Part shown: piece by piece, positions 41,186-64,000 of the stretch | How positions within the stretch are numbered: the first letter of the stretch is position 1 | Layout: the number at the start of each line of letters is the position of its first letter | Source: Roseimicrobium sp. ORNL1 | Lineage (GTDB): Bacteria; Verrucomicrobiota; Verrucomicrobiia; Verrucomicrobiales; Verrucomicrobiaceae | NCBI RefSeq assembly: GCF_011044495.1 | Contig: NZ_CP049143.1 | Location: 744,001 to 808,000 of the forward strand | Direction of reading: 5' to 3' | DNA: 64,000 nucleotides | Notes under the pieces: model-generated | The model's input: only the letters and a program-made list of their open reading frames with translations | Database searches by the model: none | What the model was told of the DNA's origin: nothing | Program-made: the position numbers and the translations under genes

Positions 41186-41293
41186 CGGGATTGCACAGCG
41201 CGAGCGAACCTGAAGTTCCAGGGAAACCTCACCTTCAATTTCGGTCTGGCTGCGCTCTTCATGCGCCGCCGCCGTCCGTGCAAGCGCTGCTGA
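41186..41293 (+). pseudogene. Decayed C-terminal tail of a PEP-CTERM protein
   Basis: An open stretch after an in-frame TGA at 41183 ends at TGA 41291-41293. It encodes F-N-F-G-L-A-A-L-F-M-R-R-R-R-P, nearly matching the last residues of the giant gene (F-V-F-G-V-A-A-L-F-M-R-R-R-R-A-G-R); 17 bases around the Met/Arg run are identical. The P-E-P box and the upstream protein are missing. I read it as the end of a former sorting-signal gene, left after deletion or rearrangement next to the intact giant gene. Confidence 0.55.
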
Positions 41294-41451: not shown

Positions 41452-41471
41452 GGCAACTTTGTTGCCTTTTT
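41452..41471 (+). terminator. Terminator-like hairpin 20 bases before the giant gene
   Basis: GGCAAC-TTT-GTTGCC followed by five T bases forms a compact intrinsic-terminator shape, flanked by A-rich sequence on the left that extends the stem. Only 19 bases separate the T-run from the ATG at 41491, too little for a promoter, so transcripts of the giant gene must read through it unless it works as an attenuator. The rest of the ~330-base gap, apart from the decayed PEP-CTERM tail, shows no gene. Confidence 0.6.
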
Positions 41472-41490: not shown

Positions 41491-44400
41491 ATGAAGTGCC
41501 CCAAGTTGCTCTTGGGCGCCGCGTTGCTGGCGTCCACCTGTCTTCTCAACCCTCGCGCGCATGCAGCGGACGCCTACTGGGACGTCAATGGGACCACCGC
41601 TGGATCGGGGGCCGTCGATGGATCCACCGTAATCTGGAATACCAACCCCTTGTGGAACGCCGCCTCGGACGGCACCGGGTCCACCGCCGCGTGGACCAGT
41701 GGAAATACGGCAGTGTTTGCCGCGGGGACGGATGCCAGTGGTACCTACATTATTACCGTTTCAGGCACTCAGAATATTTCCGGGCTGAGGTTTGAAGAGG
41801 GAACCTTCTCGCTGACAGGCGGTACCCTGAGCATTGCCAGCGCGGCCGGGGGCACGGGGGACATCAATGTGGCGGCGGGGTTGACTGCCACCATCGACTC
41901 CATCATTGCTGGCAGCCCTTCCGGCACCACGGTGCTTACCAAGACGGGCTCAGGAACGCTGGTGCTGAACGGCGTCAATACCTTCGGTGGCACCGGCAAG
42001 CGATTTGCCATCCGGGAAGGTACGCTCTCGTTCTCCAACAACAGCGCCTTGGGCAGTACCTCTAACTCTTTGGACCTGGGGACGGCAACTACCACAGCCA
42101 CGCTGCGCTACACTGGCGCCACAGCCACGATCAGCCGCGCCATCGCCCTGGCTGCACCCGCTGCCAGCTCGGTGGGCAATGTTATCGAAATCACAAACGC
42201 CAGCACGGTGCTCACCTTGAGCGGTGTCATCAGCGGGGGGCCCGGCAACTCCACCCAAGCTGCTCCCGGTACCAATACGGCCCTGACCATCCGCGGCGCC
42301 GGCACGCTGGACCTGAGCGGTACGAACACCTTCACCGGTGATATTGTGGTCGATGGAGCCACTTTCAATGTAAACGCCCTTACGGACTGGGGCGGCGCCA
42401 CGGTGGCCAGTTCCACCTCGCACACCATCACCCTGACCAACGGCGGCAAGATGGCCATCACTACGACCACCGCGGTGAATCCGGGCGCCACCACCACCAC
42501 CACGCACAACCTGCTGCAAATCGGCACGGGTGGCGGCACGGTCGATGTCATGGCCGCAGGCACCCTGCAGTTGGATGACGCGGGCCAGTTCTTCGGTTCC
42601 GGCACCCTCACCAAGACGGGCGCCGGCACGTTGTGGCTTGGCAATGCCTTCACGAACTACACGGGCACCCAGATCAATGTCAACGGAGGTATCCTCCAGT
42701 TGCAGAATGCCCAGGCTACTGGAGCGACGGGTGCGTCGGCAGCCATCACCATGGCGGGTGGCACCACGCTGAACCTCCGTACCACGGGAAATACCAACTT
42801 CGGTAGCAACGTCACCCTGACGGGAAATGTCACTATCGCCCCGGGGCGTTCCACTGGTTCCGCCACCAGCATCACCCACACGATGGGCACGCTGACGATG
42901 GGTTCCCACACCCTCACCGTTTCCCTGGGAGCCAACCTCCAGACGAATGCCGTGGGTAACCTCGTCTTTGGCGCTACCACGCTGACCGGAAACCCCATTT
43001 TCCAGCTCGACGCTCTCCAGGGTACGGGCGTTGGCAGCCTCACCTTGGGTGCTGTGGATGGTGGCGCCTCGGCCCGCACGATTACCAAACTGGGATTGGG
43101 CACGCTGATCTTCGGGGCCGATGCGACCAGCCTGGTGGCGGGCTCGGAACTGCTCGTCAAGGCGGGCAATGCCCAGGTGAATACCAGCTCTGCCCTCGGC
43201 TCTGCCTCCGTGCAGGTGGGAGACACCTCAGGCACGACGGCCGCCGGATTCTTGCTCGGTGCGGATGGCGTCAACTTCAGCAATACCCTCACCGTCAACT
43301 CCGGCTCCACCGGTGTGATGACCGTGGGTGGCTCCAACACCACCGGCACGGCGACCTTCCTGACCAACATCTCCTTCGCCAACAATCTCACCCTCACCGC
43401 CGCTACCGGAGGTACGGTGCGGTTTGACGCGAACCTCCTGGAGAGCGGTGGGGCGCGCAATATCAATAAGGTCGGTGGTGGCGTCGTGGAGCTCCGCGGC
43501 GCGAACAACTACACCGGCACCACCACCATCACCGCAGGCGTGCTGGCAGTTACCACCATCGGAGACGTGAACACCGGGATTACTTCCCTCGGTGCTCCTA
43601 CCACGGCAGCGGCGGGCACCATCGCTCTCGCGGGAGGCACTCTGCGCTACATTGGCACCGCGGTGGGTGGGCATTCGACCAATCGGGACTTTACCATGTC
43701 CGCCTCCAGCGGCATTGAGGCGAGCGGTGTGGGCGAACTCACGCTCACAGGTACCCTCACTGTCACTGACGGGTCTATGAGCCTGGGCGGCACGGGTGTG
43801 GGCAATCTCAACAATACGACCCTGTGGGCGGCTGGCCCTGGGGATGACTTCAACAAGAACGGAACCGGCACCTGGAATCTTAATGGCGCCACCTCCGCGC
43901 CGGACGACTGGAACATCAATGAAGGTGTCATCAACGCCAATGTCATGGATGCGCTCAATGCAACCGATGACGTCATCATCGACGGCACGGGTCTCGCGGA
44001 CAGCGTCATCGTGAACCTCAAGGCGGCAGATGTGTTCAGCGGAAATGAATTCTACATCCGCAATGGCGGCCGGGTGAACGTGTACGTAGACGATGCGTTC
44101 TTCGGCACGGATGTGAACCAATTGCTCATCGGCGACAGTGCCTCCACCGGTACGGGGGCCGCGTTTCTCCACCTTGGCAACCCAGCCAACCCGAGCGCAA
44201 CGGCAAACATCAGCCTCGGAGCGAATGGTCTTCAGTTGGGCGCTTCCGGTGGCAACACGGGCAGCATTACGGGGAAGGGCATCATCACCAGCGCCGGCAC
44301 GTTCTCCTTGAGAAATGGCAGCATCGGGTCTGACATCACTTTGGCTGGCGCAGGTGGCATCACAAAGGTGGGCAATGGTGTGGTGACCTTCTCAGGCACC

Positions 44401-47400
44401 CGCACTGCGACGGGCGCCACCGCCATCCAGGAAGGCGAACTGATTCTGGATTATTCCACGAACAACAGCAGCAAGATTGGCGGAGCTTTGACCTTGGGCA
44501 CGGCTCAGCCCAATGTGGTGGGTGGAGGCAAGCTGACGATGAACGGCATTGCCGGCGGCGCGTCGGCGGAAACGGTGACGGGCACCACGGTTCTGGCGGG
44601 GGCGTCCGAGGTGGCGCTCAATGCGGGTGCGGGCGCAGGCAGCAGTGTCACGCTGAATCTGGGCGGGCTCACGCGAACCGCGCTGGGCGGCACGGTGGCC
44701 TTCACGTATGGCACGGCCAATGTGATGGCCAACAGCACGACGCTGAACACGTTCCTCAACTATGCCACCCTCACGACGGGAGGCACCACGCGCTTCGCCG
44801 CCACGAATGCACTGGGCAACATCGTCCAGGCTTCCGAGGCACTGAAATCGGACATCGGCACGTGGGTAGGAACGGACAATGTGGTCAGCACGGGGGCGTT
44901 CACCGGTCAGATTGGCAATCGTGCCTCGGTCATCAACAGCCTCACCTTTGACACCCCGTCCTCCTCCATCAGTGCACTCCCCAACCGCCGGCTTACCATC
45001 AGCAGCGGCGGCATCTTGGTGAGCTCCGCCGTAGGCGCGAGCAACATCGTCATCAGCGGTGGTCAGATCGCAGGTTCTGCCACGGCCCCCCTGGGTGAAC
45101 TCATCATTCATCAGAACAACACGCTGGGCAGTCTTGAGATTGCCTCGAACATCGTGAACAGCGCCGGCCTCACGAAGAGCGGGCTGGGTGAGTTGATCCT
45201 CTCAGGCAACAACAGCTTCGCCGCCACCAGCACCTTGGTCATCAATGAAGGCACCCTCACGGCTCGTGGTGGCAATGCCATTGGCGACACCACCGTCGTG
45301 CACCTGAAGCAGGGCGCTACTCTCGCCATTGGTGACGGCGATACCGAAACCGTTGGCCGCCTGGGCGTGGATACCACCAATATCTCGAGTGGTACCGTCG
45401 CTCTTGGAAACGGCAGCCGGCTGAATATCAATCAGGGCACGACCAACACGGTTTATGCGGGTGTGTTCACCGGCGGAGCCAACACGACCATTACCAAGAC
45501 GGGGAACGGCAACCTCCAACTCACGGGAAACACTACTACGGGTTTCTCCGGCACGCTGGCAGTGAATGGAGGCCTGGTTTATATAGCGGGCTCGACAGGA
45601 CGCCTGAGCAGTGCCGCCGAAATCATCGTGAACAAGGGTGGTTCGTTCATGATTGATAACAATGATGACAGTTCCCCGAACGATCGCCTTTCCAATACAG
45701 CCGCCATCACCCTGCACTCGGCAGACGGCGCCTGGAGTGGGGAGACCCGTCCCAAGGGTCTCATGATTCGCACGGACAACAACGGGGACGAAACAGAAAG
45801 CGTCGGTGTGCTCACCATCGCCAGCGGCTCCAACTATGCCACGCTGGAGGGCACCGGCACTGGCACCAACGTCAGCATTGCCAGCATCATCGCCTCGAAC
45901 TTTGTCCGCAATGTGGGCACCACTCTCGATGTGCGTGGCATCAATCTGGGCGGTACCACGAACTCCCGTGGCCAGCTCAAGATTGCCGATGGCGCCAATG
46001 AAGTCGCCTTCCTCGCCAGCACGAATCTCGTGGGCGGCGGCGCTGCCGTCGGTGCGGGCAACAAGAATGTGAGCATCGTTCCTTGGGCCATCGGTGAAAA
46101 CACCACAATTGCCCTGGTGGATACCAACATGGGCAACACGTTCCTCACGTATGTGGACAACCGGGGCTTTGTGGCCCTCGATCTCGCCACGGAATATCGG
46201 GCCTACGCCACCGCGGGCACGGCTCAGGACAACGTGCGTGAAGTGCTGAATGCCAGCGTCGCCAACTTGACCGGCAATACCGTCAATTCCCTGATTTTGC
46301 ATGACAACACCACCGACGCGGGCACGCTCGCCTTTACCGGCACGGGTGCAGGACAGGCTCTCACGGTGACCAGTGGCGCCTTCCTCTTCACCTTGAATAC
46401 CGGTGCTACTACCTCATCCGCCCACACCATCAACGTGGGTGGTTTCGATGACGGTATCAAGGTGGGCTCCACCAATGAGTATCTCTTCTTCGTGGTGAAT
46501 CCCTCGTCCGCGACCAATACGCCCACGCTCACGGTCAATGTCGCTTCGCCCTTGAACTCCACGACCGCCTCACTGACGAAGGCGGGACGCGGCACGCTGG
46601 TTCTGTCCGGCACGAATACCTACGGCGGCGGCACCTACCTCAACGAAGGTGTGCTGCAGATTTCGAATCTGACCAATCTTGGGACCGGCGCCATCAACTT
46701 TGCCGGCGGTACGCTACGCCTCGGCGCTGGCTTTGCCGAGGATCTTTCCACCCGCGCGCTCACTACCACAGCAACCGGCGGATTCATTGATACCAACGGT
46801 ATTAACACCGTATGGGCAAACGGCCTGGACATCACCGGCACCGGTCCCGTGGCGAAGACTGGAAACGGCCTGATGACCATTCAGGGCGCATCCACCTACA
46901 CGGGCACGTTTGTCGCAGGACACTCCTCCAGCACCACAGGGGCGAACACCGGTGTCTCCCAGGGCGTGGTACTGAATGGCATTACGAACCAGACCATCAC
47001 TGGCAACCTGCAGGTGGGCTCCACCGTCGTCCCTGCTGCTGGTATTGCCGGCGTGGCCTTGGGTGCGGATGAGCAGATCGCCAATACCAGCGTCATCATC
47101 TTCAATGGCTCCACCAGCTCCAGCAGGTGGGCCTATTTCAAAATGCTTGGCCACAATGAGACCGTGGCCGGCATCTCGGACTCCACCGGTGCGGGCGTTC
47201 TTGAAAACCGCGAATCTGACGTGGTCACCAGCGGGGCCACGCTGACGCTGAACAGTGACGATGACTACAGTTACAACGGCTACCTGCGCGACAACTCTTC
47301 AGGCACCGCAGACGTGAATCCGCTCTCCCTCGTGAAGCTGGGCAGTGGCACGCAGACTCTCAGCGGCAATCAGATTCGCTACACGGGCGGCACCACGGTT

Positions 47401-50400
47401 TCGGGCGGTGTGCTCTACTTGCTGAATACAACCGTCTTCAACAGTGCCATCACGAACAACGCCTCGGTTGTCTTCGACTACACCTCCGGCACGGCATTGA
47501 CGCTTACGCGCGACATGGCCGGCTCTGGCACCTACATCAAGCGTGGCACGGGAACGGTCGAGTGGAATGGCAACAACACCTTCTCCGGCCAGTTGGCGAT
47601 TGAGGAAGGCGTGCTGAGCTTCAGCTCCAGCCTGGGAAACAATGCGGTGGGCAACTTCATCCGCATCCATGAAAATGCCACGCTGCGCAGCACCGGGGCA
47701 GACAACACCTTGGGCAACAACCAGGCCATCGATCTGGGTGGCAGTGTGGTGAATATCGATGTCGCGGGAGCCGCTGCGAACAAGCTGACTGTCCGTGGTG
47801 TGATCAGCGGTGGTGCACAGACCGCGCTGCAGAAGCAGGGTGCGGGACGTCTCATACTTTCCGGCGCCAACACGTATGCAGGACAGACCCGCGTGCTGGC
47901 AGGTGCGCTTGAGCTTCGCAATACCGCGGCGCTGGGAGCCTCCAGCAGCACGACCGTGGCCAATGGCGCGTCCCTGGTCTTCAATGCTTCCGCCGCCGGC
48001 CCGGCTGGCAACTTCACCCTCAACGGTACCGGGAGTGTGCTGTCGCTGGGCAGTGCCGGTGGTTCTGCCACCCTGGGATTTGGCATCAATGGTGCGACCA
48101 ATGACAAGCTGATTCTTGCCTCGGGTCAGACCCTCACCATCGGGGGAAACAGTGTGCTGACGGATATCTTCATCAACGGAATGCCCACGCTCTCCAGCTA
48201 CAATCTGATCCAGAGCGCGGACACGATGGACTTCAGCAAATTCACGCTGGGTACCATCTTCAATCCGGGCAGCTTCACCTATTCGCTCAATACTTCCGGC
48301 ACGAACAATCTGGTGCTGAATGTCACCGCGGCAGCGGCGCCTTCCGTAGCCTACTGGAAGGGCGACTTGGGTGGCACTGGCACAGGTGTGTGGTCAGCTT
48401 ATCAAATCGCACCCAACTCCACCAACTGGGATACGACTGCCACCAGTGGCGTCGACACGGGAGTCGCTCCAGGCGCGAACACGGATGTGTTCTTTGCGGC
48501 GAATGGTGCGGCCAACTATGCCACCACCCTTGGCGCTGATATCGCCGTGCGTGGTGTGACCTTCATGTCCGGATCCGGCACCGGTGGAAACAACACCACC
48601 GTGGGCGGTCCGCACACCCTCACGCTGGGAGCAGGCGGCATTACCCTTGCCGCCGGTTCCGGCAGCATCAACATCAGCGCGGCGATTGCCATGGCCACCA
48701 GCCAGACCTGGCACGTGGCGGATGCGGGTGCCACGCTCACCGCTTCGGGAGGTCTCTCGGGAACGGGTGACTTTGCGAAGTCCGGCGCGGGTACGGTTGT
48801 CCTTTCGGGGAACAGCACTTACAGCGGCACCACGACCATCAATCTAGGTACTCTTCAGATTGGTGCAGGTGGCACCACGGGGACGCTGGGTGCGGGCAAC
48901 GTCGTGAACAATGGCGTCCTGATCATCAACCGCGCCGGTACGTACGTGGTAAATCAGAACATCAGCGGCTCGGGTTCGCTCGTGAAGACCGGAAGTGGCG
49001 CCGTCACCTTCAACGGTACGCTCAACTACTTCGGTTCGACGACACTCGATGGAGGCACCACGGTGTTCGGCGTTTCGCAAACCGCCTTCGTTCTCACCAG
49101 CAACTCGCTGATCTTCGGCGCCACGGCTGGCAGTGCCACCGCCAGCAATCTCGATCTGAGCTCGGCAAGCGCCAAGTTTGGTGGAGCCATGACGGTGCAG
49201 ACCAACAGTGCCACCGCCAATACCATCACCATCGGCGCTGGTCAGTCGTTGGAGGTCGAAGGCAACGTGATGGTGGGCTATGCGCCGGCCACCGGTGTGG
49301 GTACTACTTCTCTCGATGTCGACGGTGCAGGTTCGTTCAACGTGACCAACCTTACCAGCGGCGCCTTTTTCCGGGTGGGCGGCTATGATGCAGGCACTGC
49401 AGGCATTGGCAACCGTGCCATCGCCGACTTCAGCGGCCTGGCCAGTATGAATGTGTCGCTCAATACGACCAATGGCCTCGTGCGCGTGAGCAACCTCTCA
49501 AGTGGAAACACCACTGGCTCGTACAGCACACTCTTGCTCGCGCAAAACTCGACGCTTACCGCGCATCAATTGATCATCGGTGATGGTGGCCAGTTCAACA
49601 ATCCTGCCGATCAGATTAACGAAATGAGATTGGGTTCGGGAGTGAACACGCTGAACTTCAATCAGATCCTCATCGGCAATGGTACGCGTGACTACGGTGC
49701 CCTGGTGTTCAACACGGCGTCCGGCAGTCTCTTCATCCGCAACGCCGCCGGAACAGGTCGCGCAACCTTTAACATGGCCACCGCAGGCGGCACCAGCACC
49801 GGCACGACGAACATCGCGGGCAATACTTTCAGCACCGTGGGACACAACGCGGATCTCTTCCTCGGAGTCGTCACCATTGGCTCGCAGAATCGCGGCAACG
49901 CCCTTTTGAACACGTTCTCCTTTGATCAGGGCACGCTCGACATGCAGAGGCTGGTCATGTCCACAAGGTCCGCCAATCCGTCGACGGGTACGGCGACGAA
50001 CTGGACCACCAACAGCATCATGAACCTCGGTGGCGGCACGGTGAACATCGTAGAGGGCATTACGAATTTCGCCGGGACCTCGGGCACCCTCACGGCAGGC
50101 ACGGCAGTCACCGCCACCCTGAATCTCACGGGCGGAAACATCACTGTCGGCACCACGGGGGGCACCTCCGTCACGATGGCCACGGCCGCTGCCAGCACGG
50201 CCGCCACGGCCGCCATCAACATCTCCGGAACGGCGAATGTCACCATGAACGGCAACATCGTCCGGGGCGGCGGCGCAGGCACCAGCACGGCCACAGTCAC
50301 GCTGAATGGCGGTACGCTGAACATGACTGGCAAGGCCATCGGTGGTTCTGCGGCCGACAAGACGATTGTCTTCAACCTGCAGCAGGGCACGCTCCGCAAC

Positions 50401-51276
50401 CTGGGTGAGTACAACGGCGGTGGCACCCTGGTGAAGACCACCTCGGGCGTGGTGAACATGGAAGGCACGCACTCCTACACCGGTCAGACGCAGGTGAATG
50501 ACGGCACCATGCACTTCAACAGTGCCACGTACTCCGGTGCTGGCAGCTTCACCGTGGCGAAGACTGCGCCGCTCTCCAGCACCGCAGTGCTCTCCGGTAC
50601 TGGCACCATTGCGTCGTCGGTGACGTTGGGCAGCACCACGGCGGGTGTCTCCGGCATCCTCAAACCCGGCACCAATCTCGGCACGGGTCATGGCACGCTG
50701 ACCATCGGTGGAGATCTGACGGTGAACACTGGTTCGCAGATCCAGATGACCCTGGGTATTGCCACCCTGAATAGCGCGGGCTTCAGGAATGCCCTCATGA
50801 ACGGCACGGCGGTCAATGCGTTGGATTATCTCCAGCAGAACAGCAGTGAAGTGGCGGTGTGGAATGTGGCGCCTGCGGTAGAAGGCGACAGTGACTACAT
50901 CAAGATCACCGGTGCCCTCTCCACGCCTACCGTGGGCGACCGTGCCACCGGTGCTTATGGCGACGGTTCCATTGTGGTGTCCCTCGGCACCGGTTTCAAC
51001 GGCGGGTTTGGCAGTGTGTTCAACCTCGTTGACTGGCTGACCCTGTCGAACATCTCCGGCACCTTCGATGTGGGCTCGTTTACCGTGTACGACGCTTCCG
51101 GCAACGTGATCGCCGGTGACCTCGACCTTCCGACGCTTGGCACCGGCCTGTCCTGGGACGTGAGCGCCTTCTCGCAGTACGGCGTCCTCGTGGTCGTTCC
51201 GGAACCGGGCCGCGCGATGCTCTTCGTCTTCGGCGTGGCCGCTCTCTTCATGCGCCGCCGTCGTGCGGGGAGGTAG
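41491..51276 (+). CDS. Giant PATR (autotransporter-associated beta-strand repeat) surface protein with PEP-CTERM tail
   Basis: The 3261-residue protein has a signal peptide (L-L-L-G-A-A-L-L-A-S-T-C-L-L, cleavage near A-H-A). It is Gly/Thr/Asn/Ser-rich, with at least 17 copies of the PATR core, K-x-G-x-G-x-L-x-L-x-G-x-N-x-Y-x-G (e.g. L-T-K-T-G-S-G-T-L-V-L-N-G at ~residue 150), spread along a probable beta-helix. There is no C-terminal autotransporter barrel. Instead the end reads V-V-P-E-P-G-R, a hydrophobic helix and R-R-R-R-A-G-R, the exosortase/PEP-CTERM sorting layout. It should be cut and placed at the surface or in the matrix by an exosortase not in this window. The start has no visible Shine-Dalgarno sequence and lies behind a terminator-like hairpin. 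Confidence 0.9.
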   Translation: MKCPKLLLGAALLASTCLLNPRAHAADAYWDVNGTTAGSGAVDGSTVIWNTNPLWNAASDGTGSTAAWTSGNTAVFAAGTDASGTYIITVSGTQNISGLRFEEGTFSLTGGTLSIASAAGGTGDINVAAGLTATIDSIIAGSPSGTTVLTKTGSGTLVLNGVNTFGGTGKRFAIREGTLSFSNNSALGSTSNSLDLGTATTTATLRYTGATATISRAIALAAPAASSVGNVIEITNASTVLTLSGVISGGPGNSTQAAPGTNTALTIRGAGTLDLSGTNTFTGDIVVDGATFNVNALTDWGGATVASSTSHTITLTNGGKMAITTTTAVNPGATTTTTHNLLQIGTGGGTVDVMAAGTLQLDDAGQFFGSGTLTKTGAGTLWLGNAFTNYTGTQINVNGGILQLQNAQATGATGASAAITMAGGTTLNLRTTGNTNFGSNVTLTGNVTIAPGRSTGSATSITHTMGTLTMGSHTLTVSLGANLQTNAVGNLVFGATTLTGNPIFQLDALQGTGVGSLTLGAVDGGASARTITKLGLGTLIFGADATSLVAGSELLVKAGNAQVNTSSALGSASVQVGDTSGTTAAGFLLGADGVNFSNTLTVNSGSTGVMTVGGSNTTGTATFLTNISFANNLTLTAATGGTVRFDANLLESGGARNINKVGGGVVELRGANNYTGTTTITAGVLAVTTIGDVNTGITSLGAPTTAAAGTIALAGGTLRYIGTAVGGHSTNRDFTMSASSGIEASGVGELTLTGTLTVTDGSMSLGGTGVGNLNNTTLWAAGPGDDFNKNGTGTWNLNGATSAPDDWNINEGVINANVMDALNATDDVIIDGTGLADSVIVNLKAADVFSGNEFYIRNGGRVNVYVDDAFFGTDVNQLLIGDSASTGTGAAFLHLGNPANPSATANISLGANGLQLGASGGNTGSITGKGIITSAGTFSLRNGSIGSDITLAGAGGITKVGNGVVTFSGTRTATGATAIQEGELILDYSTNNSSKIGGALTLGTAQPNVVGGGKLTMNGIAGGASAETVTGTTVLAGASEVALNAGAGAGSSVTLNLGGLTRTALGGTVAFTYGTANVMANSTTLNTFLNYATLTTGGTTRFAATNALGNIVQASEALKSDIGTWVGTDNVVSTGAFTGQIGNRASVINSLTFDTPSSSISALPNRRLTISSGGILVSSAVGASNIVISGGQIAGSATAPLGELIIHQNNTLGSLEIASNIVNSAGLTKSGLGELILSGNNSFAATSTLVINEGTLTARGGNAIGDTTVVHLKQGATLAIGDGDTETVGRLGVDTTNISSGTVALGNGSRLNINQGTTNTVYAGVFTGGANTTITKTGNGNLQLTGNTTTGFSGTLAVNGGLVYIAGSTGRLSSAAEIIVNKGGSFMIDNNDDSSPNDRLSNTAAITLHSADGAWSGETRPKGLMIRTDNNGDETESVGVLTIASGSNYATLEGTGTGTNVSIASIIASNFVRNVGTTLDVRGINLGGTTNSRGQLKIADGANEVAFLASTNLVGGGAAVGAGNKNVSIVPWAIGENTTIALVDTNMGNTFLTYVDNRGFVALDLATEYRAYATAGTAQDNVREVLNASVANLTGNTVNSLILHDNTTDAGTLAFTGTGAGQALTVTSGAFLFTLNTGATTSSAHTINVGGFDDGIKVGSTNEYLFFVVNPSSATNTPTLTVNVASPLNSTTASLTKAGRGTLVLSGTNTYGGGTYLNEGVLQISNLTNLGTGAINFAGGTLRLGAGFAEDLSTRALTTTATGGFIDTNGINTVWANGLDITGTGPVAKTGNGLMTIQGASTYTGTFVAGHSSSTTGANTGVSQGVVLNGITNQTITGNLQVGSTVVPAAGIAGVALGADEQIANTSVIIFNGSTSSSRWAYFKMLGHNETVAGISDSTGAGVLENRESDVVTSGATLTLNSDDDYSYNGYLRDNSSGTADVNPLSLVKLGSGTQTLSGNQIRYTGGTTVSGGVLYLLNTTVFNSAITNNASVVFDYTSGTALTLTRDMAGSGTYIKRGTGTVEWNGNNTFSGQLAIEEGVLSFSSSLGNNAVGNFIRIHENATLRSTGADNTLGNNQAIDLGGSVVNIDVAGAAANKLTVRGVISGGAQTALQKQGAGRLILSGANTYAGQTRVLAGALELRNTAALGASSSTTVANGASLVFNASAAGPAGNFTLNGTGSVLSLGSAGGSATLGFGINGATNDKLILASGQTLTIGGNSVLTDIFINGMPTLSSYNLIQSADTMDFSKFTLGTIFNPGSFTYSLNTSGTNNLVLNVTAAAAPSVAYWKGDLGGTGTGVWSAYQIAPNSTNWDTTATSGVDTGVAPGANTDVFFAANGAANYATTLGADIAVRGVTFMSGSGTGGNNTTVGGPHTLTLGAGGITLAAGSGSINISAAIAMATSQTWHVADAGATLTASGGLSGTGDFAKSGAGTVVLSGNSTYSGTTTINLGTLQIGAGGTTGTLGAGNVVNNGVLIINRAGTYVVNQNISGSGSLVKTGSGAVTFNGTLNYFGSTTLDGGTTVFGVSQTAFVLTSNSLIFGATAGSATASNLDLSSASAKFGGAMTVQTNSATANTITIGAGQSLEVEGNVMVGYAPATGVGTTSLDVDGAGSFNVTNLTSGAFFRVGGYDAGTAGIGNRAIADFSGLASMNVSLNTTNGLVRVSNLSSGNTTGSYSTLLLAQNSTLTAHQLIIGDGGQFNNPADQINEMRLGSGVNTLNFNQILIGNGTRDYGALVFNTASGSLFIRNAAGTGRATFNMATAGGTSTGTTNIAGNTFSTVGHNADLFLGVVTIGSQNRGNALLNTFSFDQGTLDMQRLVMSTRSANPSTGTATNWTTNSIMNLGGGTVNIVEGITNFAGTSGTLTAGTAVTATLNLTGGNITVGTTGGTSVTMATAAASTAATAAINISGTANVTMNGNIVRGGGAGTSTATVTLNGGTLNMTGKAIGGSAADKTIVFNLQQGTLRNLGEYNGGGTLVKTTSGVVNMEGTHSYTGQTQVNDGTMHFNSATYSGAGSFTVAKTAPLSSTAVLSGTGTIASSVTLGSTTAGVSGILKPGTNLGTGHGTLTIGGDLTVNTGSQIQMTLGIATLNSAGFRNALMNGTAVNALDYLQQNSSEVAVWNVAPAVEGDSDYIKITGALSTPTVGDRATGAYGDGSIVVSLGTGFNGGFGSVFNLVDWLTLSNISGTFDVGSFTVYDASGNVIAGDLDLPTLGTGLSWDVSAFSQYGVLVVVPEPGRAMLFVFGVAALFMRRRRAGR

Positions 51277-62186: not shown

Positions 62187-64000
62187 ATGCAAATCCCCTA
62201 CGTGTTCAGGGCTACCGGTGCCCTCCTCCTCGCCGGCCTCAGCTTCACCGCCGAAACCTTTGCCCAGACCACCTACACGTGGGATGGGAGTTCTGATGGC
62301 AACTGGGGCACCGCCGCAAACTGGACGGGTAACGTTGCACCTGTGGATGCTGGAACCGCACCGGAGAACATTGTCCGGTTCGACAACAACAGCACAGCGA
62401 ACCTGCTGACGACGATGAACCTCACGAGCGGGTTCGACTTGAGCCAGATTATCGTCACCAATCCCACAGGCACGATCACGATTCGCGCCGTGAACAACTC
62501 AAGTCGTGTCATCGACCTTTGGGCGAATGGTTCGAATCCAACCATCGACATGTCGACAGCGACGCAGGATCTGATTTTTGCGAATCAAGGCTCTGGGACC
62601 ATGACTCTGAATGTGGCCAACACCAGCCAGACCTGGAACGTGGGTGGCGGACGTACGCTTACCACTTCGGATGTGGATGGCAGTACTGCCCAGATCCTGA
62701 CGCTGACCGGCGGTGGAACAATCATCCTTGGCGGTACTACTGACAACGCCAGTCTGCGGGTCACCGTGTCGGGCAATACTCTGGTGACACTTGGCAAGAC
62801 CGCTTCGACTGCCGCCATCCATGCTCTTGGTGGGAATGCCACATCAGTCATCGACAATGGATCCACGATGCGCATCACGGGCACCGGTGGAGACCAGGTC
62901 TTCTTCCAGCATGACCTTCAGGTGGACGGTGTGTTTGATTTGAACGGGCAGTCGGAGGGTATCGATGCACTTTCCTCCGCCGCAGGTTCCGCAACCGGCA
63001 TCATCACCAGCGGCGCAGTCGGCAACGTGACGTTGCGTATCAACGAGAACGGCGCTGGGGGCACCTATGGCGGCATCATCCAGGATGGCGGGGGTGTCGT
63101 TTCTGTATTGAAGGCGCACACCGGCACGCAGGTCTTTGCCGGGAACAACACTTACAACGGCTCCACCACCGTTTCGCGCGGCATCCTGCAACTTCTAGGC
63201 GCCTCCGGTGCTTTGAGTGGTACCAGCAGCATCATCCTGGATGGAACGGGCGAGCTGCGTCTCGACAGTCGTTCCACCTCGGGCGGGTTTGCCGCGGCGG
63301 TGAACAACAACCGCGTTGCGGATGATGCCACGGTCGACATGCGTGGCGGCATCTTCTCCGTCTATGGTGTCAGCACGGCGGACGTCAGCGAGACGGTTGG
63401 TGCCCTGAGTATTACCTCGGGCTTCAACGTGATTCGCCTGTCATCCGATACTGTGGCCGGCACCACGACCACTGGCCTCACGTTGTCTGGTCTGAGCCGC
63501 AGCATCGGCGCCACCTTGGGTGTCATGGCAGACAACCTCACCGTGGCCACGGATTTTGGCACGGTGACGACCGGTGCTGATGCCGCGTATCTCCGCGTCG
63601 TCACTGGGAACATCGCTTCGTCCATGATCTCCGGTGCCAGCGGCACGGGTACGGAGCGAGATATCCTCATCGGCGTCTTCGGTAGCGGAAGCACGACGAA
63701 TGCGAATGCCAGCGACTTCATGACGGTGGAGAGCGGGATAGGTGGCTATGACTATCTCCGGCCGCTGCTTGCTTCTGAGTATGCCACCGCCACCAGCGGA
63801 GAGATTGGGCAGAAGAACGCGCTCAGCACGGCGAATACCACGCTGAACCTTTCCACCGCGTACAATGCCTTGAAGATTTCTGGCGGAGCATTGAGCATCG
63901 GGGCGAACAAGACCCTTTTCCTTGGTGGTCATGCTGGTTCCGGCTCGGAAGGCTCGGGCATGCTGCTGATCACAGGGGGCACGGGTATCACCGGCGGATT
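62187..64000 (+). CDS. PATR (autotransporter-associated beta-strand repeat) surface protein, N-terminal part (runs off the window)
   Basis: The ATG at 62187 starts a signal peptide (F-R-A-T-G-A-L-L-L-A-G-L-S-F-T-A-E-T-F-A-Q) and an open frame of 604 codons to the window end with no stop. The opening T-Y-T-W-D-G-S-S-D-G-N-W-G-T-A-A-N-W is the W-D-G-x-x-x-x-W-x-x-x-x-N-W start typical of PATR proteins. Long Gly/Thr/Asn/Ser-rich beta-strand repeats follow, e.g. G-T-Q-V-F-A-G-N-N-T-Y-N-G-S-T-T-V. It is a second member of the giant-gene family, 10.9 kb after the first ends. The C-terminus and its sorting signal are outside the window. Confidence 0.85.
   Translation, partial: MQIPYVFRATGALLLAGLSFTAETFAQTTYTWDGSSDGNWGTAANWTGNVAPVDAGTAPENIVRFDNNSTANLLTTMNLTSGFDLSQIIVTNPTGTITIRAVNNSSRVIDLWANGSNPTIDMSTATQDLIFANQGSGTMTLNVANTSQTWNVGGGRTLTTSDVDGSTAQILTLTGGGTIILGGTTDNASLRVTVSGNTLVTLGKTASTAAIHALGGNATSVIDNGSTMRITGTGGDQVFFQHDLQVDGVFDLNGQSEGIDALSSAAGSATGIITSGAVGNVTLRINENGAGGTYGGIIQDGGGVVSVLKAHTGTQVFAGNNTYNGSTTVSRGILQLLGASGALSGTSSIILDGTGELRLDSRSTSGGFAAAVNNNRVADDATVDMRGGIFSVYGVSTADVSETVGALSITSGFNVIRLSSDTVAGTTTTGLTLSGLSRSIGATLGVMADNLTVATDFGTVTTGADAAYLRVVTGNIASSMISGASGTGTERDILIGVFGSGSTTNANASDFMTVESGIGGYDYLRPLLASEYATATSGEIGQKNALSTANTTLNLSTAYNALKISGGALSIGANKTLFLGGHAGSGSEGSGMLLITGGTGITGG

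What the first reader, a model, noticed from the sequence alone, without database searches (positions are those of the whole stretch)
41491..51276. A 3261-residue PATR protein sorted by PEP-CTERM instead of an autotransporter barrel
PATR repeats are named from autotransporters, yet this protein has none of the barrel and ends in a clear P-E-P, hydrophobic helix and Arg cluster. At least 17 repeat cores are visible. It should be sorted by an exosortase and may build a matrix or adhesion layer. With the second family member at 62187 and the ghost tail, the region looks like a small array of such proteins.
Basis: partly seen in the sequence, partly recalled or inferred. Interest (0 to 1): 0.6.

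Follow-up and report, generated by a model that had tools for sequence, protein, structure and literature searches.

The report
Autotransporter passenger with exosortase sorting tail
A giant bacterial protein is built like the exported part of an autotransporter, but the pore that normally carries such a protein out is replaced by a short tail of the kind read by a different sorting enzyme; its genome holds both designs, so the two export routes can be compared directly.

Summary
ORF 41491-51276 (3261 aa) has a Sec-type leader, 12 Pfam PATR stretches, no barrel match, and ends V-P-E-P, hydrophobic stretch, RRRR. Of 39 PATR ORFs examined in this genome, 34 end in PEP-CTERM, 3 in an autotransporter barrel, 2 in neither. 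The cap before the PEP tail matches, end to end, the cap before the barrel in those 3 barrel proteins (hhalign E 2.3e-7); its model (pLDDT 92.7) fits the C-terminal part of autotransporter passengers (Ssp, IcsA, pertactin). In 7 related genomes with PATR but no exosortase, 17 of 22 PATR frames carry the barrel, 5 run off contig ends, none shows PEP-CTERM. Best reading: an autotransporter-type passenger whose barrel is exchanged for an exosortase signal, probably served by the family-wide EpsI-fused exosortase, and probably ending up on the surface or in matrix. Cleavage, outer-membrane route and function are untested. The 'small array' is weak: the family is dispersed with slight clustering. 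PATR/PEP-CTERM proteins are annotated widely; the module-exchange evidence is what is new.

The parts
41491..51276 (+). 3261-aa PATR / PEP-CTERM protein, about 322 kDa, pI about 4.7; T 15%, G 16%, N 9%; its only two Cys lie at residues 3 and 17, in the leader
41491..41565 (+). Sec-type signal peptide, residues 1-25 (MKCPK + hydrophobic core + AHA|AD; cleavage place by eye)
   Evidence: sequence and leader heuristic; no dedicated predictor was available
41935..50511 (+). PATR repeat region, residues 149-3007: 12 Pfam stretches, 13-17 cores by an independent HMM, irregular spacing
   Evidence: a single-sequence model of residues 1690-2161 was poor (pLDDT 47), so beta-helix here is inferred from the family
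50893..51195 (+). C-terminal cap (residues 3135-3235: D-x-[IL]-x-I-x-G ... G-D-x-F-N-L-x-D-W ... L-D-L-P-x-L ... W-D-x-S ... G-[IV]-[IL]-x-V-V), like the region before an autotransporter barrel
51196..51273 (+). PEP-CTERM tail VPEPGRAMLFVFGVAALFMRRRRAGR (residues 3236-3261)
41234..41293 (+). remnant tail FNFGLAALFMRRRRPCKRC*, no PEP, between the preceding ORF and this gene
62187..64000 (+). second PATR / PEP-CTERM gene, cut by the window end (ends at genome 812378)

Best explanation
The protein is an autotransporter-type passenger (leader, PATR beta-helix stalk, passenger-terminal cap) in which the outer-membrane barrel that should follow the cap is absent and a PEP-CTERM signal sits at that junction. 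Proposed working: Sec exports it; the tail helix with its Arg cluster holds it in the inner membrane; an exosortase, most likely the EpsI-fused one at genome 1327365-1329440, cuts at or near the PEP motif and hands the chain on; the Cys-free chain is then moved to or through the outer membrane by a route not yet known and stands as a long rod on the surface or in exopolysaccharide, serving adhesion or matrix building. Shown here: anatomy, family, exosortases, junction homology, barrel-only pattern in exosortase-less relatives. Inferred: which exosortase, cleavage, surface location, function.
For: Anatomy. Three exosortases in the genome; Cys (CSG/CAG) and Arg (N..R) align in all three. Tail class PEP[SGTD][RK] in 36 of 46 ORFs examined, 33 of them PATR; two exosortases have an oddly tailed secreted neighbour of their own (PEPAAVM beside L061, PEPATTLLL beside L047), which leaves the third for the main class. 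That third exosortase matches in 59 of 59 genomes of the family at E<=1e-10 and has a 57%/46% identical counterpart in the other genus G066. Cap before PEP vs cap before the barrel of the genome's own three barrel-type PATR proteins: hhalign prob 93.5%, E 2.3e-7, aligned to the last column; with one more barrel protein added, E 2.2e-9. Model of the last 302 residues: pLDDT 92.7; VIA-align Z 16.8 to Ssp (188 residues, 2.8 A), 13.8 IcsA, 12.7 EspC, 12.5 pertactin, 11.7 Hap. Exosortase-less PATR genomes: barrel in 17 of 22 PATR frames, the other 5 cut by contig ends, PEP 0; exosortase-bearing sample: 31 PEP, 14 barrel, 6 neither, 4 cut, of 55. Cys depletion: 5 Cys in 70,657 residues of 35 ORFs, 0 in 5,072 of the three barrel passengers, 66 in 5,415 of 12 window ORFs.
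Against: This gene's own tail is below the TIGR02595 and PF07589 cut-offs. Within the Akkermansia-like family f2 alone the exosortase contrast is not significant (3 of 12 PEP vs 0 of 15, p 0.075), and none of the Fisher tests corrects for relatedness. Pre-barrel regions of the 11 other barrel proteins compared gave no end-to-end cap match (PATR part only in A7 and A9, nothing in A8). Foldseek alone had no match at E<=0.001 (best 0.036). Genome G113 has 12 PEP-CTERM proteins and no exosortase found, so a PEP tail does not prove an enzyme. Six of 51 complete PATR proteins in exosortase-bearing genomes have neither tail nor barrel. Nothing shows cleavage or surface location.
Confidence: 0.7

Rival explanations
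1. The tail is only an inner-membrane anchor: the protein stays in the periplasm as an uncleaved, membrane-tethered beta-helix rod and no sorting takes place.
For: Cleavage is untested; the tail is weak by HMM score; G113 keeps PEP-CTERM proteins without a detectable exosortase; Akkermansia proteomics found higher PEP-CTERM protein levels in intracellular than in outer-membrane fractions (PMC4960237, passages seen).
Against: Exosortases are present and the L062 type is found in 59 of 59 family genomes; PATR frames in exosortase-less relatives show barrels instead; [quoted passage not shown]
Confidence: 0.15
2. A standard autotransporter whose barrel is encoded elsewhere (two-partner secretion or a split gene), with the PEP tail incidental.
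For: Passenger-type fold and cap; three PATR+barrel proteins and further barrel ORFs exist in the genome.
Against: No barrel and no TPS-type N-terminal domain matched in the protein; next-door genes are a Mur ligase and a gene without a Pfam match; the tail pattern recurs in 33 PATR ORFs. Genome-wide TpsB was not searched.
Confidence: 0.05
3. Same sorting, other role: a surface polysaccharide-binding or nutrient-capturing layer rather than adhesion or matrix.
For: Nothing in the protein names a function; one of the exosortases sits in an exopolysaccharide gene cluster.
Against: No carbohydrate-binding or enzyme domain matched; long beta-helix stalks in known autotransporters often adhere or self-associate (PMC9977779, passages seen).
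Confidence: 0.2

Closest known systems
PEP-CTERM / exosortase (EpsH) system, Haft et al. 2006 (PMC1569441, passages seen)
   Same: Leader, PEP motif, hydrophobic helix, Arg cluster, many substrates per genome, exosortase, exopolysaccharide genes; first seen in Verrucomicrobium spinosum, which has 65 such proteins.
   Different: That paper describes substrates with little homology to known proteins and its text never uses the word 'autotransporter' (0 occurrences); here most substrates examined share one passenger architecture and cap.
Type Va autotransporters with PATR repeats (Ssp, pertactin, IcsA; PF12951 + PF03797)
   Same: PATR repeats, Cys-poor passenger, passenger-terminal cap with the fold of the region just before the barrel.
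   Different: No barrel; PEP-CTERM instead.
Autochaperone domain of beta-helical autotransporters, Rojas-Lopez et al. (PMC5767081, passages and section 12 seen)
   Same: The fitted stretches in pertactin (326-538), IcsA (526-740) and Hap (759-976) take in most or all of the autochaperone regions given there (D444-L556, D606-L720, D830-L964).
   Different: There it is described only in autotransporters; here it stands before an exosortase signal. No Pfam autochaperone match appeared.
PATR+barrel proteins of the same genome (L054, L056, L057)
   Same: PATR repeats; homologous cap ending in G-[IV]-L-[IL]-V.
   Different: The cap is followed by a linker (AP-S-Y-T-L-V-A...) and a PF03797 barrel.

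Membership tests
PEP-CTERM proteins | Sec signal peptide | tested here: met
   charged N-terminus, hydrophobic core, AHA|AD; heuristic, not SignalP
PEP-CTERM proteins | C-terminal PEP motif, hydrophobic helix, basic cluster | tested here: met
   VPEPGRAMLFVFGVAALFMRRRRAGR; P-E-P invariant in 25 of 25 aligned paralogues
PEP-CTERM proteins | score over the curated cut-off of TIGR02595 / PF07589 | tested here: inconclusive
   14.8 vs 16 bits and 16.0 vs 20.7 bits, just under both; 35 other places in the genome are over TIGR02595's cut-off
PEP-CTERM proteins | exosortase in the genome | tested here: met
   three PF09721 matches over the cut-off
PEP-CTERM proteins | exopolysaccharide genes in the genome | tested here: met
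   glycosyltransferases, WecG/TagA-like enzyme and PEP-CTERM-associated outer-membrane protein (weak) beside one exosortase
PEP-CTERM proteins | processing of the tail by exosortase | not testable with these tools
   needs proteomics and an exosortase deletion
Type Va autotransporter | PATR / beta-helical passenger | tested here: met
   PATR; C-terminal 302 residues modelled as beta-helix; the middle is not modelled
Type Va autotransporter | C-terminal barrel (PF03797) | tested here: not met
   no match; so it is not filed as an autotransporter
Autochaperone-type cap | fold of the passenger end before the barrel | tested here: met
   VIA-align Z 11.7-16.8 to five autotransporter passengers; hhalign with the own-genome pre-barrel region
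Autochaperone-type cap | nucleates folding from the C-terminus during export | not testable with these tools
   biochemical
Exosortase, named types (XrtA, XrtD, XrtQ ...) | score over the curated cut-off of one type | tested here: not met
   L062: best 133.8 (XrtD, cut-off 400), general TIGR02602 107.9 over 105.55; L047: XrtQ 153.6 of 270; L061: XrtD 107.2 of 400

The most novel reading that the evidence does not exclude
A whole passenger class has moved between secretion systems: the bacterium exports autotransporter passengers, autochaperone cap included, without their barrel, using exosortase release plus an undiscovered outer-membrane exit in which the cap still drives C-to-N folding outside. 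If so, some thirty barrel-less autotransporters of this genome form an export class next to type Va.
Probability: 0.25. Interest if true: 0.75.

Novelty: new variant of a known kind. Interest (0 to 1): 0.5.

Why it matters
How PEP-CTERM proteins cross the outer membrane is called unclear in a 2025 paper (PMC12188702, passages seen). Here one genome holds the same passenger type with both endings, joined at the same cap. Comparing a native barrel passenger with a native PEP passenger would tell which part of export belongs to the passenger and which to the sorting end. The literature searches run here showed no paper making this link: 'exosortase' with 'autotransporter' gave one paper, an Akkermansia outer-membrane proteome; 'PEP-CTERM' with 'beta-helix' gave none. 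The library is open-licence PMC only. That databases name many such proteins with both terms is recalled, not looked up.

Tried and rejected
Shared promoter: a GG-N10-GC (sigma-54-like) site lies 40 bp before this gene, but over 42 family upstream regions only 3 have a site with at most 2 mismatches, and k-mer counts barely pass shuffles (7-mers 7 vs 6-7, gapped 6 vs 5). The consensus is recalled; Haft 2006 reports such a motif for proteobacterial PEP-CTERM genes. The site is also part of a GGCAAC-TTT-GTTGCC inverted repeat. Rejected.

Full-protein search of genome contigs: 7 pattern matches, no relative by tblastn. Single-sequence model of residues 1690-2161: pLDDT 47.1, not used. Foldseek against the PDB: 22 matches, none at E<=0.001. 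Pfam autochaperone: no match in 25 C-termini or 4 pre-barrel regions. Pre-barrel regions of the other barrel groups: no end-to-end match (A7 PATR part only, E 6.4e-6; A8 E 0.25; A9 PATR part only, E 1.4e-4). Controls: cap vs barrel domain E 0.91; cap vs the six 'neither' C-termini PATR part only.

Not evidence: that all 58 of the 80 relatives read carry PEP[SG]R tails, because the search pattern demanded it. My first automatic typing chose wrong frames for three G078 loci and missed barrels and long tails; redid it with exact frames; its one wrong 'PEP' (L097) was moved to barrel by hand and confirmed by Pfam. One of the 31 'PEP' ORFs (L070) reads PES. Dropped or limited: PATR scoring stopped at 150 of 451 candidates, so the PATR census is a lower bound; the 10,060-aa ORF was counted by its second half; structure alignment A4 uses 45 of 80 relatives plus the window, A6 22 of 80 plus the window, A5 four barrel proteins, A10 three. 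The 60 external PATR regions were picked by me from the listed matches. The 12 control ORFs were picked by hand and not all checked as genes.

Full report
What is there. The ORF 41491-51276 is a single open frame of 3261 aa. It starts with a Sec-type leader (heuristic), carries 12 PATR stretches by Pfam and 14 by TIGR02601, and matches no barrel. An HMM trained only on repeats from other genomes gives 13 cores at >=10 bits, 17 at iE<0.05, and none at >=10 bits in 20 shuffles. It ends in VPEPGRAMLFVFGVAALFMRRRRAGR. Taken alone this tail is slightly under the curated cut-offs (14.8 vs 16 bits; 16.0 vs 20.7). In an alignment with 24 paralogues the P-E-P is invariant and the Arg run nearly so.

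Where it is. The window is G000:C1:744001-808000 of a 7.96-Mb single-contig genome. A search with the C-terminal alignment gave 145 relatives, of which the 80 kept carry titles such as Prosthecobacter, Verrucomicrobium, Brevifollis, Akkermansia and Verrucomicrobiaceae or Verrucomicrobia MAGs. I take the host to be in or near Verrucomicrobiaceae; this is inference, since its own record may be left out.

The sorting enzyme exists. Three exosortases pass the PF09721 cut-off. All three keep an aligned Cys (CSG/CAG) and Arg; a His follows at similar distance but did not fall in one column (the triad is recalled, with a passage on it in PMC1569441). None reaches the cut-off of a named type. The exosortase in L061 lies in an exopolysaccharide cluster next to a 431-aa secreted protein with the tail PVPEPAAVMSVLLLVGVVFW. 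The one in L047 starts one base after a protein resembling the marine sortase-target family (396.5 bits, cut-off 551.65) with the tail VPEPATTLLLFLALAAVLFHRHR. The third, L062, carries a C-terminal EpsI-like DUF3485 domain and has no such partner. It matches in 59 of 59 genomes of the family at E<=1e-10 (in a few the best match may be a paralogue), and G066, another genus, has a counterpart with 57% and 46% identity over its two halves. G066 also has an exosortase match beside a protein with a similar odd tail and the same neighbour gene as in L047 (judged by eye), while its exopolysaccharide-cluster exosortase gave no match to L061's. By elimination the L062 enzyme is the likeliest partner of the main tail class. 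This is inference.

The family. I read 46 ORFs of this genome: the 35 hits, this gene, nine PATR ORFs without such a hit, and the L061 protein. 39 have at least one PATR core at >=10 bits. Of these, 33 end in PEP[SGTD][RK] tails, one in the other PEP type, three in a PF03797 barrel, two in neither. One of the two, in L052, stops at the cap, beside an intact paralogue. PATR counting is a lower bound, since 150 of 451 candidates were scored.

Same passenger, two endings. The three barrel-type PATR proteins (L054, L056, L057) have, before the barrel, a cap that aligns with the cap before the PEP tail. Comparing 23 PEP-type caps without their tails with these three gives prob 93.5%, E 2.3e-7, running to the last column, so that the PEP signal begins about where the linker to the barrel begins; with L097 added, E 2.2e-9. 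Comparison with the barrel domain itself gives E 0.91. Against this, 11 pre-barrel regions from other families gave only a PATR-part match (7) or none (4); the end-to-end homology is shown for 4 of 15 barrel proteins compared.

Structure. The last 302 residues, aligned with 45 relatives, model at pLDDT 92.7, pTM 0.89: beta-helix, cap, then a helix at 280-300 of the model. Foldseek alone lists autotransporters and other beta-helices without significance. VIA-align on those chains gives Z 16.8 to Ssp 423-642 (188 residues, 2.8 A), 15.4 to a gut-metagenome beta-helix, 13.8 to IcsA 526-740, 12.7 to EspC, 12.5 to pertactin 326-538, 11.7 to Hap 759-976. The published autochaperone regions of pertactin, IcsA and Hap (PMC5767081, passages) lie mostly or wholly within those ranges, and the last three rungs of the Ssp helix are said to resemble an autochaperone (PMC9977779, passages). 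I saw ranges only, not a residue map. A single-sequence model of residues 1690-2161 failed.

Natural experiment. In 115 genomes of the phylum at least 90% complete, exosortase is found in 79, PATR in 62, PEP-CTERM in 66. Seven PATR genomes lack exosortase. Their 22 PATR frames (several under Pfam's cut-off, all four of G105 among them) include 17 with a barrel in the same frame and 5 that run off a contig end. None shows PEP-CTERM; six of the seven genomes have no PEP-CTERM hit at all, and the twelve of G113 are frames of 219-294 aa, none of them a PATR frame. From 30 exosortase-bearing genomes I took 55 PATR regions: 31 PEP, 14 barrel (14 of 14 by Pfam), 6 neither, 4 cut. Fisher p is 6e-6 for all resolved ORFs, but 0.075 within family f2, and 6e-7 at genome level; none corrects for relatedness.

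Cysteine. The 34 PATR/PEP ORFs plus the tail-less paralogue have 5 Cys in 70,657 residues beyond the first 110 codons; the three barrel passengers 0 in 5,072; 12 window ORFs 66 in 5,415. This fits export in an unfolded state, but Cys poverty may simply be usual in such repeats.

How it most likely works. Sec export; tail helix held in the inner membrane; exosortase cut near PEP; transfer to an unknown acceptor; passage to or through the outer membrane by an unknown way; a long rod on the surface or in polysaccharide. [quoted passage not shown] Function in adhesion or matrix is a guess from architecture.

The array. The 62187 gene and the remnant tail at 41234-41293 are real. The remnant's best DNA match among the fetched loci is this gene's own tail (39 bp, 84.6%), which fits loss of an older copy. 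But the family is spread over the chromosome with mild clustering (10 pairs within 12 kb, 4.5 expected).

Verdict. PEP-CTERM with PATR is common in these bacteria. New here is the evidence that barrel and PEP signal are alternative ends of one passenger. Papers read: passages of PMC1569441, PMC4960237, PMC3048395, PMC12188702, PMC9977779 and PMC5767081, and section 12 of the last.

Noticed in passing
genome G000:C1:3976177-3979913 (L047:4199-7918): A VIT/VWA protein like the marine sortase-target family ends in a PEP-CTERM tail and is followed one base later by an XrtQ-like exosortase; a similar pair, judged by eye, lies in L205 of the other genus G066. It looks like a sortase substrate moved to an exosortase.
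   Followed up: partly
G113 (unnamed, single contig, 2.7 Mb): 12 PEP-CTERM proteins but no exosortase by Pfam or by the exosortase of the related genome G024; an exception to the co-occurrence rule.
   Followed up: partly
   Followed up: no
G102:C2; G005:C1: PATR frames of 17,232 aa (G102) and 21,153 aa (G005, with a barrel in the same frame) in genomes of only 2.3-2.4 Mb.
   Followed up: no
L052:1622-4732 (genome 4348121-4351231): A 1036-codon PATR frame ends exactly at the cap without PEP tail, beside an intact 1069-codon paralogue.
   Followed up: no
L082, L083, L092, L098, L109, L112: Six PATR proteins of exosortase-bearing genomes end with neither PEP-CTERM nor barrel; a third ending may exist.
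   Followed up: partly
window 41452-41471: Inverted repeat GGCAAC-TTT-GTTGCC followed by TTTTT, about 25 bp before the start codon; terminator-like or operator-like.
   Followed up: no
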